Positions 10,487 to 29,119 of a stretch of 64,000 nucleotides of DNA are shown here, piece by piece; the stretch's first letter is position 1, and each line of letters begins with the position of its first letter. The translations under genes and the position numbers were made by a program. Below the pieces are notes generated by a model, which saw only the letters and a list, made by a program, of their open reading frames with translations, made no database searches and was not told the DNA's origin. This DNA is from Fulvia fulva. Taxonomy: Eukaryota; Ascomycota; Dothideomycetes; Mycosphaerellales; Mycosphaerellaceae. The DNA lies in assembly GCF_020509005.1 (NCBI RefSeq), contig NC_063023.1, forward strand, positions 1,426,001 through 1,490,000. The letters are read 5' to 3'.

Positions 10487-12062
10487 TAGCAGGACTGCGA
10501 TCAGCTGGACTGACAGCGTTGCATCGATTCACGGATTCCGCGAAAGCTCGAAGATCGTCAGTGCCAGAGGTCGCATTTGCCTAAACCCGCAGCGTAATAT
10601 TCACGGCATCCGTGTCGAGGGTCTGGCCTCTTCACAAAGTCCGGGCCCGAAGATTGAGAGAGTGACGCCCGAGGCTGGCTTGTTCCTGACGACGATTTGA
10701 AATGCTGTTGATTACGACTAAGCTACCGCCGTGGTCGAGCTGATCAGAGCGCGATCTAGGTGACCACGATCCTGCGGCCAGAAAGTTTTGCCGACACAAT
10801 CCGTATCCAGCGTTCTACACAGCGCCCCGATGAATGGGATAGTCTGGTCCCGTGCCGGCCGGTCCTTCTTGTCGGGTCTCGGCCGTCGACCTAGTGATTC
10901 TAGTCGCTATCAACTTGTATGGTGCCGCTATCTATGCCTTTTGCTTCTGTGTCGCATATACTACTGCTGATGAGAGGCAGGATCTTGACCAGATCTGGTA
11001 AGGATAGCTTGTGTATGCGGCACATCATCTATGCTGGAGGCAGATCACAGCAGGATTCGCACTCTTCCGGATCGACTGCCTCGTATTCCACAAACTCTGA
11101 GATGAGGAACGAAGAAGCAAACCTTTGATCCTCACGCGGAACCATGTATGAATCGCGGAAAGGCCGCTGCGGAAGCAGAAACTTGGTACCGGTCGTCGCA
11201 TGATTCGCAATCGGCTCAGCGTGGGCGCCACGCGCAAGCGCTTCGTGCCGGTAACTCAGCGGCCCACAGTGGCGATAGTTGCACAAACAACGAGCGACTG
11301 CGAACAACAACAACGTCTTGTCACCAACATTTTTGTCTAGACATCAACGTCGTCACAATGCTTCAGGGAAGCATGACTGTCAACGTGGTCTCATGGTCCT
11401 GCCATGCTGGACCAAGACCCGATTCTGCCGCCTGCTAGATATGATCGACGGCGCCTGCCCCTGACATCGGATGTACGACACTTAATATGCTCGGACGGCC
11501 GAACCTTGTCGCTTCGCAACGATCCGAATGGGTTCCAGGTCCTGCTCCAAATGGTATAGTCACGCCTCTATTCGAGCGTAACACTTGCCAAGCTCTCCAT
11601 TGCAATCACTTTCGGCATCACGGTCGATCGAGGCGCATGCATGCTCCTGCAACATGATTGACCACACTTCAGATCGTCTATTCACCAACCTCAGCTCTTG
11701 CTGCCAAAGATAGGCTGCTCGCCTATGTCCTGTTCGACTCTTGAGGTACCATCATGCTGCTTCTCTAGCAGGAAGACAGCGCACACCAGTGATGGTTTCG
11801 AACAGCCGTTGGGGCACTGTCGTCGTCGGCGATGGTCTCCTCGGAGGGCGAGACGGGACTGAAATGACCTCCACGCAGCACTATCGGCGCAGGTTCTGGT
11901 CCACCGCAGTGCTCGACACCGATCGTGAAAAGTTTGATAGGACCTAATGGACATGGGCGATGAGACTCCTCGTGGCTCATAAGTAGGCCTTTCGACCCCG
12001 TCGACACGACCTTGCTCTGCCTCATCGACAGCTCATCTTCTATTATTCTTCTTTCCAGCAAT
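10487..12062. other. intergenic, no supported gene
   Basis: Ordinary composition, no RIP signature. One minus-strand open stretch (11029-11313) has protein-like wording near its end (VEYEAVDPEECESCCDLP) and could be a gene remnant, but nothing around it supports a gene. The last 80 bases before 12063 are pyrimidine-rich, as in a fungal promoter/leader. Confidence 0.4.
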
Positions 12063-13699
12063 ATGGGATTTTCCAAATATATCGCCTTTGGCGCAGCTCT
12101 TGCTGTCGCCGTCCATGGGTCTCCGGCACCCCAAGCCCCAGCAATCACTGCCATTCAGGCCGCTCCAATCGTCGCTGACGGCCCACGCAATGATGGTTTC
12201 GGCAGCCAGACTGCCACACTTGTCACCACCTTTGCATCGCCATCTCCTAGCGCTGCTGCTGTTGCCCCATCCGCTCGCGACTTGAGCAAGCGCACCTTCT
12301 GGGGAGGATTTGGTTGGGAAGGATCTGGTGCCAGCAAGAAGTGCACCTGCCCCTTCTATGACCCCTTCTGTGTCTGGAACAAGCCTCAATGCCCACAACA
12401 ACCACAACAACCACAACAACCACAACAACCACAACAACCACAACAGCCACAACAACCACAACAACCACAACAACCACAACAACCGCAACAACCACAGCAA
12501 CCTAGCCCTCCAAAGCCAACCCAGCCTACCACTACCGCCCCTGCGGCCACAACCACAGGCCTTCCATCTTGCCCAAGCTCCGGCGCTTACACCCCTTACT
12601 ACCCGGCTCTCGCGACCGGCTACACCACTGATCCCGCACTCGCCGCCAGCCGTACCTCCACTGCTACTGGACCTTGCCCAACAACTCCAGAGGCTGGAAC
12701 ATACTGTGGATTCATCAATCCACTTGACCCATGCGCTCCTCAGCCAGATGGCTACGGTCCTGTCCCCAAGGGCGATTCTGTCGACACCTTCGTCAATGAC
12801 CCACAGCTGATGGCCAAGGCTCTTACTGCTCCAACTGTTGTTCCAGCTGCTGGCGGTAAGGAGTACACTCAGGTCTTCAAGAACTTGAAGGGTGCCACCA
12901 GTGCCCAATCTTACCTAGGTCTCCGCACACTCAAGGAGTACGATGTCAAGACATGTGCTGCTTTCTGTGACTGCACAGACCTTTGCACCAGCTTCAACAT
13001 GTGAGAACTGCGCATGTCTGTGCTGATGTATAACTGACAGGCTAACGACTTCTTCAGGTACATCGAGCGTGATCCATCGCTCAACCCAACCAACAACGAC
13101 TCTACCTACGACCCAGGCTACCCAACGGTCTGGGGACAGAACTGCCCCAACCCACCATCTATGACCTCCTACAAGTGCACTCTCTGGGGCTCCAAGATCG
13201 ACGCCTCTACCGCTACTAACACTGGCGAGAAGCGCAGTGGCTTCGAGGTCGTTATCACCGGCTCAAACGGATACAGCAAGACCAACGTAGCACCACCTCC
13301 ACAGCCAGTGCCTAACCCGCCAAAGGGTCCAAAGGACTGCGGAGGCAAGGGTATCAATGCACCAGAGTACTGCATCGGTAACAACTTCTTCCCAGGACCC
13401 TTCAACCCCAAGGTCTGCTACCTCTACGCTCTGTCGCTGAACAGCGCCAACTCCAAGGCTGGCATCAGACAGTCTTGTAAATTCTTCAACGCCTACGTAA
13501 GTCTTGGCATCATAACGTGTCATTCGCTATCAGAGTGATGCTAACTCCTCGATAGTACCTCTTCAAGAACGGCAAGCCATCGGGAACATACTGCAATCTG
13601 TTCAACAGCGAAATCGACATCTCCTTCGCTACCTACAGCGGCAGCAAGATTGGAGGCGACAGCTACACCTGTGGCCAGTCTTTCGGATACTTCTTGTAG
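12063..13699 (+). CDS. secreted PQQ-repeat protein with PAN-like cysteine domain
   Basis: A 506-residue predicted secreted protein of unknown function. Exons are 12063-13000, 13058-13496 and 13556-13699; both introns (57 and 59 nt) keep phase. An upstream in-frame Met at 12012 was rejected because the Met at 12063 directly starts a signal peptide (about 1-19, ending AVAVHG). A Kex2-type Lys-Arg (76-77) precedes TFWGGFGW. Residues 111-146 are twelve PQQ triplets, followed by a Pro/Thr linker. A Cys-rich region follows (CAAFCDCTDLCTSFNMY, then KCTLWGS, then GFEVVITGSNGY), like the PAN/apple-like segments common in ascomycete extracellular proteins. The C-terminus has further paired cysteines and ends CGQSFGYFL. 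A cell-wall or matrix role is plausible but inferred. Confidence 0.85.
12393..12500 (+). repeat. coding minisatellite, 12 x 9 bp (PQQ)
   Basis: Twelve tandem copies of CCACAACAA. Nine are identical; units 6, 11 and 12 differ by single A/G changes that leave the protein as Pro-Gln-Gln. The array lies inside exon 1 of the secreted protein and is likely to vary in length between strains. Confidence 0.95.
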
Positions 13700-15185: not shown

Positions 15186-15195
15186 CATCTGATTG
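15186..15195 (+). repeat. target-site duplication, left copy
   Basis: CATCTGATTG directly abuts the left TIR; the identical 10-mer follows the right TIR at 17103-17112. The bases outside differ (T on the left copy, TTTGC after the right copy), so the duplication is exactly 10 bp. Confidence 0.85.
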
Positions 15196-15315
15196 CGGTG
15201 AATTACTCCGACAGGGACAATTATGTCAAGAATTACTACGACAGGGACCATTATGTATTTCTTACTCCGACAGGGACTTGCACGGTATCCATATTACTGC
15301 CACAGGGACCATTAT
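15196..15315 (+). repeat. left terminal inverted repeat, 120 bp
   Basis: Perfectly complementary to 16983-17102. It contains four copies of an ACAGGGAC core at 15211, 15241, 15270 and 15302 (spacing 30, 29, 32), most preceded by ATTACTCCG-like sequence and followed by AWTATG. Such iterated motifs are candidate transposase-binding sites. Confidence 0.9.
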
Positions 15316-15344
15316 TGCCACATCGTCGCATTCTCACCCCAACC

Positions 15345-15385
15345 CATTTAACCTGCTCTCCCATTCCAGCAGAGCACGTTAAATG
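15345..15385. repeat. hairpin unit A of the TIR element
   Basis: The arms CATTTAACCTGCTCT and AGAGCACGTTAAATG pair over 15 bases with one mismatch around an 11-base loop. The left arm contains an exact TTAACCTGCTC (15348-15358). Confidence 0.75.
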
Positions 15386-15449
15386 AGTTAGGGCAATGCC
15401 AGAAACGCATGGCCTTGTGAAGGCGAATGATCGTGAGCTACTGAGCCAT

Positions 15450-15720
15450 GAGCAGGTTAATCGTGGAGGTGAATGAACGAGGGGCACGAGCAGCGCGAGC
15501 AGGTTAATCGTGGAGGTGAATGCACGAGAGGCACGAGCAGGGCAATGAGACTATACGAGCAGGTTAATCGTGGAGATGAATGCAAGAGAGGCACGAGCAG
15601 CGCGAGCAGGTTAATTCAGTAGAGGTGAATGAACGAGAGGCACGAGCAGGGCAATAAGACGATGCGAGCAGGTTAATAAGACAATGCGAGCAGGTTAATG
15701 ACACAATGAGAGCAGGTTAA
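15450..15720 (+). repeat. direct-repeat array of GAGCAGGTTAA
   Basis: Seven exact copies of the 11-mer start at 15450, 15497, 15557, 15604, 15666, 15688 and 15710. The first four lie in longer repeats (ATCGTGGAGGTGAATG, then ACGAGAGGCACGAGCAG) of about 47-62 bp; the last three are spaced 22 bp. The same 11-mer forms the arms of the hairpins elsewhere in the element. Confidence 0.9.
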
Positions 15721-15785
15721 TGAGACGATAGACGGCCAAGAGAGTTCATTCGAGCAGAGCAGAGACAGACAGACACACCCTAAAG

Positions 15786-16214
15786 CTAATCACAATCCTT
15801 GCCTTGGTAGCGGTACCAGGCACACCGATTCATAGCGTCGACGCGAACGCCGACAGCAGAACGACCAGCCACAGAGTAACGCCAGCACCTATCACTCGTG
15901 TCACCCTCGGCGACACGGCCAACACAGCGACGGTATGGTGTTGGGCGAGCTTCACGAAGCTCAGGGCGCTCTATAATGTTGCCGACGTGCGTAGCTTCAC
16001 GAAGCTCGCTAGCAGCGTTCTCATCAAGATGAGCATTCAGCTCGTAAGCTGCCCACTTCGCAGCAGACCACGACCACCACTTGCCAGCGACCACAGGTTG
16101 CCTGCGAGTGACTTTCGTCGTACCCGCAGGACGACCTCTCTTCTTCTTGGGAGCAGGCAGCGGTGCGCTCAGACATGTCAGCTTCGAGGTCGTGAAGGGT
16201 TGAGAGAACGACAA
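15786..16214 (-). CDS. small AT-hook ORF inside the TIR element
   Basis: A 142-codon ORF, the longest in the element. Residues 23-34 (KKKRGRPAGTTK) match the AT-hook, a minor-groove DNA-binding motif centred on Gly-Arg-Pro. The rest (WWSWSAAKWAAYELNAHLDE and an Arg-rich tail) is unfamiliar. The first codons overlap another open frame (16024-16269), so a spliced start is possible. No DDE-type catalytic triad can be made out and the protein is too short for a known transposase. It could be an accessory DNA-binding protein, or a fragment of an autonomous element's gene. Confidence 0.35.
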   Translation of the reverse strand: MSFSQPFTTSKLTCLSAPLPAPKKKRGRPAGTTKVTRRQPVVAGKWWSWSAAKWAAYELNAHLDENAASELREATHVGNIIERPELREARPTPYRRCVGRVAEGDTSDRCWRYSVAGRSAVGVRVDAMNRCAWYRYQGKDCD

Positions 16215-16569
16215 GCTTGCTTGTCGTGTTCGAGGCTGAGGAGTGAGACTTACGCAGAGGAGGGACCATTGCGTTACTTATTATGTCGCTCGTGTAGTTC
16301 TTATGCTTGCTATAGTGTTGCGGGTAGTTGTAAGAGGGTGTATATAATAGTGTAGAGAGCGAGCAGTATAAAAGGTGTAGTCGAAAAGATAGACATCGCG
16401 AGACAATAGCGTAGCGTAGGTTATTGTGTATGTGAGGGTAGGGTATAAGGATAGGATGTGAGAATAGGATGTAAGCATATAGCCTCTTTGCTACCCACGT
16501 TACGACAATAGCAACGCTCGACTGTAGGGCTAGCAGGCTCGGCGATTATATACGTTATAGCATTGCCCT

Positions 16570-16630
16570 GTCTAGTATGATTTAACCTGCTCCGCAAGGA
16601 CAAGTGGGCAGGTAAAATCACACTAGACAT
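16570..16630. repeat. hairpin unit B of the TIR element
   Basis: Inverted arms of 24 bases (TGTCTAGTATGATTTAACCT... with its partner) have three mismatches around a 13-base loop, CGCAAGGACAAGT. The arm contains TTAACCTGCTC (16582-16592). Confidence 0.75.
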
Positions 16631-16711
16631 AGTGCCTATAACTGTATAAGGTCTAAGGAATAAGAACGCCGAGGGAGGGCTATAAGCTAGGCGATCAAAT
16701 GTATTATGCTA

Positions 16712-16774
16712 CTTCCCTGTATTATATAACCTGCTCACCTGTTCTTGCAGAGCAGGTTAAATCGCATAGGGAAG
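16712..16774. repeat. hairpin unit C of the TIR element
   Basis: The arms begin CTTCCCT and end AGGGAAG, with ATAACCTGCTC and GAGCAGGTTAA inside. The 13-base loop ACCTGTTCTTGCA is the exact reverse complement of the loop in unit D. The outer arm sequence differs from units B and D. Confidence 0.8.
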
Positions 16775-16881
16775 GCGCCTATAACTAGATAAGGTCTAGT
16801 TAACAAGAGAACGAAGTAAAGTACGGTTACACGGACATAGCTATTAACTCTCCTTTGCCTACCTATGCTACTTGATTTGTT

Positions 16882-16944
16882 GCTCCTATATCGCTTTAAC
16901 CTGCTCTGCAAGAACAGGTGAGCAGGTTAAAGCGATATAGGAAG
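16882..16944. repeat. hairpin unit D of the TIR element
   Basis: The best of the hairpins: TCCTATATCGCTTTAACCTG and its partner pair perfectly over about 23 bases around the loop TGCAAGAACAGGT. Both arms hold an exact 11-mer (16896-16906 and 16920-16930). Confidence 0.85.
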
Positions 16945-16982
16945 CTCTACCTGGCTATAGTACTTCATTTGTGTCGTTGGCG

Positions 16983-17102
16983 ATAATGGTCCCTGTGGCA
17001 GTAATATGGATACCGTGCAAGTCCCTGTCGGAGTAAGAAATACATAATGGTCCCTGTCGTAGTAATTCTTGACATAATTGTCCCTGTCGGAGTAATTCAC
17101 CG
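16983..17102 (-). repeat. right terminal inverted repeat, 120 bp
   Basis: Reverse complement of the left TIR without a mismatch over 120 bases. Beyond that the two sides diverge after one mismatch and four further matching bases. It carries the same four ACAGGGAC cores in opposite orientation. Confidence 0.9.
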
Positions 17103-17112
17103 CATCTGATTG
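17103..17112 (+). repeat. target-site duplication, right copy
   Basis: CATCTGATTG, identical to 15186-15195. On the minus strand it encodes Asn-Gln-Met of the interrupted ORF, and the same codons recur at the other copy. Confidence 0.85.
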
Positions 17113-26513: not shown

Positions 26514-29119
26514 AGGTTGGAAGAATGTACTTTAGAGGGAAGGTGTAGAAGAAGCTAACGGCTCAACGCGTGAAGCATGTTAAAAGGAAGACGAAGAGTA
26601 TCATCAATCGAAAGGACCAGGCAAGAAGTCGAAACGACCCGAATCTCCATGATCTGACTCCGTCCCGAGTCGTATGACCCAAAAGCGGTCGCCACGCTTC
26701 GCTCACATCCATCCTTTCGCATTCCGCGTACACCGCACTCGATCCTTCGTCTCGCCCTAAGTATAAACTCGTGTGCAGTAACACTCTGCATCACCACTGA
26801 CTCATCGGAGCCTCCACGTGTTGTATCCAACAGGCAAGTGCTGTGCCACGCGCAGCGCTTCGAGCACTTGGCAAAGTGCCTCATTCGGCGAGGTGAAACG
26901 TACAAGGTGTGTTCGGTTGCTGGAGGGTTACTCAAATGAGGCTCTGCTGACGACTTCGTTTCATGTCGTGATCGAATCGAGAGGCGAGGCCGGTCAAAGT
27001 AATGCGGCGCCTGTCAGCTCAGAAGAGATTTTGTTTACACTGTTCACATTGTGATGCCATAAGTAACGTGCGTCGAAAGATGTCGTATGATTGACCAGGA
27101 TCCTCATCGTGAGTCTCACCTCACGAATCAAGACATTCAACACTTTGCTCTTCGGACTCGGTCATTCGCATAGGAATGCCAGGTTCCTGACGACGTATCG
27201 ACTCGCCTGCCACGCCTGCATCGTCAGAATATACTCCGCGTCACAGGGTTCATGACCAGCCTCCAGGGACCAGGGCACCTGCGTAGAGCGGAGCCCTATA
27301 TGTGACTTTGGCGCCGATGATCCGGTTTGACACATGGTATCCATGGTCCGGACAACGACTGTGCATTCTTGGCCTGCGACGAAGATCATTATCGCATGGC
27401 ATCGTCCTCTTGGTATTGTTATTCTTGACGTCCGCGTCATCGTGACCTCGTGTTTTGCTGACTGGCGTCTCAATCGGTTTACTGGCAAGCCGAACAATGG
27501 CTTGCACCCGGTTTGCGATTCTTCCGGAGAAGTCGTTGCTCAGCTCTCCGGTGGCCACGCGACTCAGGCAGAAGGGTCAGGCGAGGCATGCAGAAACAAG
27601 AGCATAAGGCAGGATTTCGATAGGGTGGGCATAAGCTCGTGGAACGAGAACGCCGATAGCTCTCATGAGCCCTAATATTTCGTCAACGATATCGATATGC
27701 GTGTGGATGCCTGATGGTGGCGGCCGGGTCAGCATTTCTTCCGCTTCAGTCTCGTGTTCTTGGTGTTCTTTCTTGCGGGATGCGCACTCTGCCTCGCGCC
27801 TGCCCCTCCAAGCAGCACAGCTTGGTGAGGTGCATCCATGTACGCGAGCAAGCCATTGCACCTAATAAGGACATGATAAGGTTGTTCCTACATTAGCACA
27901 TTGAAGGAATGCACACGGACTTTTCTCCAGGATCACACTTTTTGCATCTATTTTCAGCGCTTTGCAGTGACACGACCGACGCCACGGAGAATGTTCATTG
28001 GAGCGATGCCCGATGGCAGTTCTAGAAGCTGAGGCGCCGAGAACGAGCACCTGTGCGCGGTCAACGTGAAACGGTCTGGCGCTCCCAGATTCCCAGAACC
28101 AGACTCGGTTTCTGCACCACGCGCGCCGATGCAATGCGACATGAAGAGAGACTGCTTCTGGTTCCGGTCGCGCGAGACAGCTGCAGCGGAAATCGCAGGT
28201 CTGTAGTATCCACTCCGCGATTCAGCACATCCATACGGAAACAATAGCATTCTTCCCCGACCTTCAGGCTGAACAACACCTCTCGCCGTGTTCGCTGTCA
28301 TCGTCTCGTTTGTTTGTGGCGTCTGCGAGCCCGTTTCCGGGCAAGCTGCCGCACGCGTGTCCAATTTTATCAGCGCGCGTCGACCAGTAGGCACGCGCTC
28401 TTCGCAAACCCTCCTACAACTTACAAGAAGCAGGCTGGCGACATGCATCTGCTTATGCAGCACCTCGATCGCGACCCAATCGTCGCGCACGGCTTGACTA
28501 ACATCCCTACGGCACCGCTGCCACAGCCCTGCGCCTTGACGTCTTCGGCCAGGAAGAGGGCTTCGCTAACATCGACACCAGTCAGCGGCACGCCCAGCGC
28601 CAGTGCCGAGAAGTCCCCTGTCCCCTATTTCAGACGGTAGAGAGACCCACTGCTCGAACACGAACTCGAGGGCGCACGTCGCATGGCTTCCCTACTGGGT
28701 TTCACTGCTACCGCGCCAGCCAAAACCACGCCTACTGCCCTAGTCATTGGCAGCATGCCGTCTGGCTGTGCTGCACTGGCTCGAGCACCCACAGCAGTCG
28801 CAGACGTCCCCGCGAGAGGTGCAACGAAGCGAGACCCCGCGAGATGTGCAACACCAAGCCCGTGTTGGACTAAAGTCCTACAGTCCTACTGCAACCGTTG
28901 AGCGCCTCCCGTTCCTACACCCAACTGTCAAATCTCCCTTAAAGTGCCTCTCCGCTACCACGGCACTGGGGCCTTTTCTCGAAGCACATCAACCAACCCA
29001 TGCGCGCCAGCTTCTGCCTTCTGAGACTGTGACTCTCGTTTCTTACCATTGGCATTGCGCTCACCGTCAGGACCCTTCTTAATTCTTATTTCTATTGATT
29101 GACTGCCATCGTCTTCATC
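26514..29119. other. intergenic, 2.6 kb, nothing recognised
   Basis: Several short open frames exist on both strands, but none has a recognisable domain, signal peptide or plausible exon structure. Composition is normal. The last 60 bases before 29120 are pyrimidine-rich, as in a promoter/leader. Confidence 0.4.

What the first reader, a model, noticed from the sequence alone, without database searches (positions are those of the whole stretch)
15196..17102. Recent, RIP-free TIR element with 120-bp perfect ends and a 10-bp target duplication
Seen directly: perfect inverted ends, an exact 10-bp duplication of CATCTGATTG, and an uninterrupted ORF on either side that is in frame once the element is ignored. 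No transposase is present. A long TIR plus a 9-10 bp duplication is known for Mutator-like elements, but the iterated TIR, AT-hook ORF and hairpin interior do not fit any fungal family I can name. It could be a new non-autonomous family mobilised by a partner elsewhere.
Basis: partly seen in the sequence, partly recalled or inferred. Interest (0 to 1): 0.8.

Follow-up and report, generated by a model that had tools for sequence, protein, structure and literature searches.

The report
Orphan fungal jumping-DNA family, ends intact
This is a genuine, recently multiplied jumping element without an enzyme of its own, found in many copies in one fungal genome; in damaged copies the fungus's own defence has mutated the middle far more than the ends, which may help explain how such orphan elements persist.

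Summary
Window 15196-17102 is a 1,907-bp element with terminal inverted repeats (TIRs; first 120 bp identical, 124/125 overall) and an exact 10-bp target duplication (TSD), CATCTGATTG. It is not an artefact: its terminal 23-mer occurs at 29 ends in this genome, reversed control 0. They form 11 facing pairs and 7 single ends; 10 of 11 pairs fit an exact 10-bp TSD. Copies are deletion derivatives or interrupted by other repeats, and no transposase of their own was found: a non-autonomous DNA-transposon family. Copies differ almost only by CpA>TpA changes (RIP), 0-6 transversions per alignment, so the family is young. Resident MULE families make 9-bp TSDs (5 of 5 copies) and have unrelated TIRs, so they are poor partner candidates. 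A lost MULE and an AcademH-type transposase both remain possible. 'RIP-free' is only nearly true. The flanking frame is continuous but no longer than at random positions, so gene disruption is not shown. New here: in damaged copies RIP falls from 80-89% of sites in the centre to 13/65 and 0/54 in the outer 60 bp, similarly in two MULE families.

The parts
15186..15195 (.). target site duplication, left copy, CATCTGATTG
   Evidence: exact 10-bp match to 17103-17112
15196..17102 (+). whole element, 1,907 bp
   Evidence: inverted ends plus TSD; family copies in the genome
15196..15320 (+). left TIR, 125 bp; iteron cores start at 15203, 15233, 15262, 15294
   Evidence: genome-wide every one of 69 iteron matches lies in an end of this family
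15348..15720 (+). left subterminal array of GAGCAGGTTAA, mostly direct; possible protein-binding sites (function inferred)
   Evidence: array present in five other copies examined
15786..16214 (-). AT-hook-like ORF, 142 aa; probably not a real gene
   Evidence: no Pfam match, no homologue, overlapped and shorter in other copies; 'AT-hook' is a motif resemblance, no call names it
16266..16268 (.). internal-deletion junction relative to longer copies (about 915|2091 in coordinates of the 2,925-bp C3 copy)
16582..16942 (.). right subterminal inverted pairs of the same motif (the hairpins)
   Evidence: longest: 23-bp arms 16884-16906 / 16920-16942, fully complementary
16978..17102 (-). right TIR, 125 bp; iteron cores at 16989, 17021, 17050, 17080
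17103..17112 (.). target site duplication, right copy, CATCTGATTG

Best explanation
A non-autonomous cut-and-paste DNA transposon family. A DDE-type transposase supplied in trans is inferred to bind the four TIR iterons, perhaps also the subterminal motif array, to cut at the CGGTG ends and to insert through a 10-bp staggered cut that becomes the TSD. The window copy is an internal-deletion derivative of a longer parent. Shown: ends, TSDs, copy number, different internal deletions sharing both ends, few transversions between copies, no transposase in the copies examined. Inferred: cut-and-paste, supply in trans, iterons as binding sites, and that the partner is lost or was destroyed by RIP. 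Superfamily undecided; my estimate is MULE-type 0.5, AcademH-type 0.25, other 0.25.
For: 29 ends, control 0; 10 of 11 pairs with an exact 10-bp TSD, all different; heterogeneous deletions with shared ends; 0-6 transversions in 16 alignments of 240-532 bp from 15 loci; one end (C5:1298462 copy) lost about 115 bp while the flanks still read as a 10-bp duplication with one mismatch, as after an abortive excision (reading inferred); Pfam on 73 interior frames found only two reverse transcriptases and one DDE_3, the DDE_3 lying in a 3.67-kb repeat that also occurs outside the family.
Against: No transposase that fits was found, so mobility in trans is inferred. Mobility was not seen directly: no other strain was available. 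One pair (C3:1654163 and 1760300) fits 12 bp with one mismatch, not 10. The two C4 pairs fit only after undoing an assumed inversion. Most of the interiors of the 106-kb and 187-kb pairs and all of several single-end loci were not read.
Confidence: 0.93

Rival explanations
1. More specific: a non-autonomous Mutator-like element (MULE) whose MULE transposase source is lost from this assembly or has diverged ends.
For: MULE TSDs are 8-11 bp and TIRs 14-500 bp; the ascomycete Mutyl makes 9-10 bp TSDs (PMC6446971, passages); fungal VdMULE TIRs are 73-86 bp and carry internal direct duplications (PMC3441728, passages).
Against: Of 16 MULE-domain matches in the genome none is inside a pair or within 200 kb of a listed end; the nearest is 221 kb away. 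Resident MULE families A and B make 9-bp TSDs in 5 of 5 copies and share no TIR motif longer than 7 bp.
Confidence: 0.5
2. More specific: a non-autonomous AcademH element, moved by an Academ transposase with helicase.
For: AcademH makes 9 or 10 bp TSDs (PMC10045372, passage) and is recorded at low copy in Ascomycota (PMC10799480, passage).
Against: None of 87 Helicase_C matches lies inside a pair. AcademH terminal sequences could not be compared: the original paper is not held and no AcademH profile or sequence was at hand.
Confidence: 0.25
3. Assembly error or chance rearrangement rather than a mobile family.
For: Only one assembly was searched.
Against: 11 pairs on 6 contigs with different flanks and TSDs.
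Confidence: 0.01
4. For the RIP gradient: selection for functional ends rather than an edge effect of RIP. Only copies whose ends were still intact could transpose, so intact ends are enriched.
For: All three families measured have functional-type TIRs. Copies were found largely through their TIRs, so copies with ruined ends may be missed; the one C13 copy L028 has 5 of 8 outer sites mutated.
Against: The decline reaches about 250-500 bp inwards, beyond the TIR, and is similar in two MULE families with 41- and 51-bp TIRs that were found by their central domain.
Confidence: 0.3

Closest known systems
Fungal Mutator-like elements (Hop, Mutyl, VdMULE)
   Same: TSD within 8-11 bp, long TIRs, internal direct duplications in TIRs, internal-deletion derivatives (PMC6446971, PMC3441728, passages; Hop itself recalled)
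   Different: no MULE transposase in any copy examined; the two MULE families measured in this genome make 9-bp TSDs and have other TIRs
AcademH DNA transposons
   Same: TSD of 9 or 10 bp, present in Ascomycota (PMC10045372, PMC10799480, passages)
   Different: no transposase with helicase found between these ends; termini not compared
Tm1 Mutator/Foldback family of root-knot nematodes
   Same: composite TIRs, mostly non-autonomous members (PMC3169594, abstract and outline)
   Different: 9-bp TSD; TIRs of variable length, whereas here the iteron number is nearly constant
CACTA/En-Spm and hAT/Ac elements (recalled)
   Same: subterminal arrays of short motifs that bind transposase proteins (recalled, no call)
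   Different: those make 3-bp and 8-bp TSDs; here 10 bp
MITEs
   Same: non-autonomous, TIR and TSD
   Different: 1.9-2.9 kb rather than a few hundred bp (size limit recalled)

Membership tests
Non-autonomous TIR DNA transposon (as a kind) | inverted ends, TSD, several copies, no transposase | tested here: met
MULE | TSD of 8-11 bp | tested here: met
   10 of 11 pairs exactly 10 bp
MULE | long TIRs | tested here: met
   125 bp
MULE | a related copy that encodes a MULE transposase | tested here: not met
   none of 16 MULE-domain matches lies at this family's ends; it may be lost, so membership stays open rather than claimed
MULE | same TSD length and TIR as resident MULE families | tested here: not met
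   9 bp in 5 of 5 copies (one with a mismatch), unrelated TIRs
AcademH | TSD of 9 or 10 bp | tested here: met
AcademH | Academ transposase with helicase in a related copy | tested here: inconclusive
   Helicase_C absent from all pairs; no Academ transposase profile available; large interiors unread
AcademH | AcademH terminal sequence | not testable with these tools
   paper not held
Foldback-type element | TIR made of direct repeats of variable number | tested here: inconclusive
   repeats present; an iteron is missing at one end of two copies, C6 and C8

The most novel reading that the evidence does not exclude
RIP mutates the centre of dispersed transposon copies but hardly touches their outermost 60-250 bp. 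It would thus kill transposase genes while leaving the inverted ends usable, and so turn DNA-transposon families into orphan, still mobilisable non-autonomous families. The present family would be such a survivor, possibly served by a transposase of an unrecognised superfamily.
Probability: 0.35. Interest if true: 0.6.

Novelty: new member of a known kind. Interest (0 to 1): 0.4.

Why it matters
The family is a set of end-intact insertions with an almost constant 10-bp TSD in a RIP-active fungus. It gives a natural measure of how RIP intensity falls towards the edge of a repeat, seen in three families here. If transposon ends escape RIP in general, that would help explain why non-autonomous families outlive their transposase genes in such genomes. 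Presence or absence of the copies between isolates would show directly whether the family still moves.

Tried and rejected
Resident MULE families as the partner: measured, rejected as a likely source. Giant element with cargo: the 21-kb, 106-kb and 187-kb pairs looked like giant elements. The 21-kb interior was read and is made of repeats, with the family sequence resuming on the far side, so cargo is rejected there; for the other two only stretches near the ends and one inner piece were read, so it is only unlikely. The C1 5.8-kb copy as the autonomous element: its 3.67-kb interior with a DDE_3 domain also occurs at C12:363998-367666 and C1:4026226-4029473, so rejected. Gene capture in the C3 2.9-kb copy: a 399-bp stretch at 98% also lies at C4:3712562, with weaker pieces at C4:3311912 and C6:1840264; left open. 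AT-hook ORF as a gene: not supported. Disrupted host gene: not above random positions; a search with one half of the frame found nothing at E<=0.01 among 59 candidates, which says little because it is unknown how many fungal proteins that library holds. A common ancestral interior among RIP-damaged copies: looked for, not found.

First version of the RIP count counted one stretch twice because two fetched loci overlap (L014, L015); one search repeats it with the pieces merged by copy, and its numbers are used here.

Literature: searches for 10-bp TSDs, for this species with inverted repeats and non-autonomous elements and for RIP at edges or ends listed no title or abstract that describes this family or the end-to-centre gradient; I opened few of the listed papers, and the library lacks most subscription journals. 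The 'asymmetric RIP' of PMC10823647 concerns genomic regions, not positions inside elements (section 13).

Full report
Setting. The window is G000:C12:1426001-1490000 of a genome of 67,169,167 bases in 14 contigs. Size and number equal those reported for Cladosporium fulvum Race 5, 67.17 Mb in 14 chromosomes (PMC9453070, abstract and passages). The species is therefore inferred, not given by a tool. That abstract reports 49.7% repeats and RIP over 39.2% of the genome.

The element. Ends 15196-15320 and 16978-17102 match at 124 of 125 positions, the first 120 all identical, flanked by CATCTGATTG. Each TIR holds four copies of a 16-bp core with starts 30, 29 and 32 bp apart, near three helical turns (inference). 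Inside is an array of GAGCAGGTTAA: 14 sites with at most one mismatch in the element against 15 in the window; on the left mostly direct, on the right in inverted pairs that make the hairpins.

The family. The TIR as query gives 31 matches. The terminal 23-mer with up to 3 mismatches gives 29 ends, 0 for the reversed pattern: 11 facing pairs and 7 single ends (pairing is mine). Six simple pairs (window; C1 5.8 kb; C2 5.7 kb; C3 2.9 kb; C12 2.07 kb; C4 2.1 kb) have exact 10-bp TSDs, all different; the C1 pair would also fit 11 bp. So do a 21-kb pair on C3 and a 22.6-kb pair on C8 (with the right flank). On C4, the ends at 27300, 36818, 51318 and 238923 carry 10-mers that match only as reverse complements between elements; one inversion of the 14.5 kb between 36818 and 51318 restores two perfect 10-bp TSDs. 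The last pair, C3:1654163 and 1760300, fits 12 bp with one mismatch. So 10 of 11 pairs fit an exact 10-bp TSD, two of them after undoing the inversion. The single end C5:1298462 belongs to a copy whose other end lost about 115 bp, with flanks that still read as a 10-bp duplication with one mismatch.

Copies share both ends but differ in internal deletions. In coordinates of the 2,925-bp copy the junctions are about 915|2091 (window), 1066|2095 (C12 and C3 21 kb), 1293|2166 (C4 2.1 kb) and 1254-1267|2589 (C4:27300, C4:238923, C5:1298462). Longer copies are short copies interrupted by other repeats. Of 73 interior frames of at least 75 codons (all that 14 interior stretches gave; 12 of the 14 gave any), Pfam at E<=0.001 found RVT_1 in two and DDE_3 in one; the DDE_3 lies in a 3.67-kb repeat that occurs elsewhere. 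RIP-broken frames shorter than 75 codons were not scanned.

Age and RIP. Over window 15735-16266, 16 alignments of at least 150 bp from 15 loci differ from the window by 0-6 transversions each and one 1-bp gap in all; most other changes are C>T at CpA or the complement. The family is young and its apparent divergence is RIP. The window copy is among the least affected, with 25 of 271 CpA/TpG sites in the mutated state.

Ends spared by RIP. In 12 damaged copies (of 19 tabulated; the other seven, the window included, are light), mutated CpA/TpG sites from left end to centre are 13/65 (outer 60 bp), 35/98, 78/187, 112/191, 143/237, 216/268, 220/262, and from the right end inwards 0/54 (outer 60 bp), 15/54, 27/72, 54/106, 53/88, 56/69, 35/40. 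Restricted to the 178 sites unmutated in the window and five light copies, the outer values are 5/57 and 0/54 and bin 701-850 is 111/128. One copy, L028 on C13, has 5 of 8 outer sites mutated. Caveat: copies were found mostly through their TIRs, so ruined ends may be missed. Two MULE families, found by their central domain, behave alike: family A (3 copies) has polymorphic CpA-type sites at 0/7 and 0/11 in the two outer 60 bp, 2/17 and 3/14 in the next 65 bp, 75/146 and 69/136 in the centre; family B (2 copies) 0/33 and 0/33 in the outer 250 bp on either side, 33/74 and 20/80 in the centre. An edge effect of RIP is more likely than selection on one TIR, but selection is not excluded. RIP weakening at repeat edges may already be known from Neurospora; I have only an uncertain recollection, and two searches listed nothing on it.

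Who moves it. TSD length is usually set by the transposase. MULEs make 8-11 bp (PMC6446971, passages), AcademH 9 or 10 bp (PMC10045372, passage). The genome's own MULE families, used as a control, make 9-bp TSDs in 5 of 5 copies (one with a mismatch) and have TIRs unlike this one. Of 16 MULE-domain matches none lies inside a pair, the nearest 221 kb from an end. Of 87 Helicase_C matches none lies inside a pair. Both lists are lower bounds. All 69 matches to the iteron (up to 3 mismatches) lie in ends of this family. No copy with a fitting transposase is visible and the superfamily stays open.

The frame across the empty site is real (248 codons), but random window positions give a median of 196 and an upper quartile of 278; eleven sites of the family give 76 to 257. 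The AT-hook ORF has no Pfam match or homologue and is overlapped by a longer frame.

Verdict. A real, young, non-autonomous TIR transposon family of a known kind, not met in my limited literature searches. The most interesting by-product is the decay of RIP towards transposon ends.

Noticed in passing
G000:C4:36819-51317 (flanks in L014, L015, L022, L024): A 14.5-kb stretch near the start of contig C4 appears inverted by recombination between two copies of the family; the swapped TSDs record it.
   Followed up: partly
G000:C1:10744635-10748278, C3:871038-874672, C1:2251372-2254997 and C3:2382178-2385371, C6:1983593-1986789 (coordinates worked out): Two MULE families (about 3.63 and 3.2 kb) with 41- and 51-bp TIRs, 9-bp TSDs and CpA-type differences concentrated in the centre.
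   Followed up: partly
L011:1425-1823: 399 bp of the C3 2.9-kb copy recur at C4:3712562-3712959 at 98% and in weaker pieces at C4:3311912 and C6:1840264: a nested repeat or a captured fragment.
   Followed up: partly
L016:2150 / L018:1300 and L022:1213 / L041:578: What looks like the same other repeat is inserted at or beside the GAGCAGGTTAA motif in two copies of the family; perhaps a target preference.
   Followed up: no
window 12012-13004, + strand: A 330-aa frame with a long run of PQQ repeats and a hydrophobic start, possibly a secreted repeat protein.
   Followed up: no
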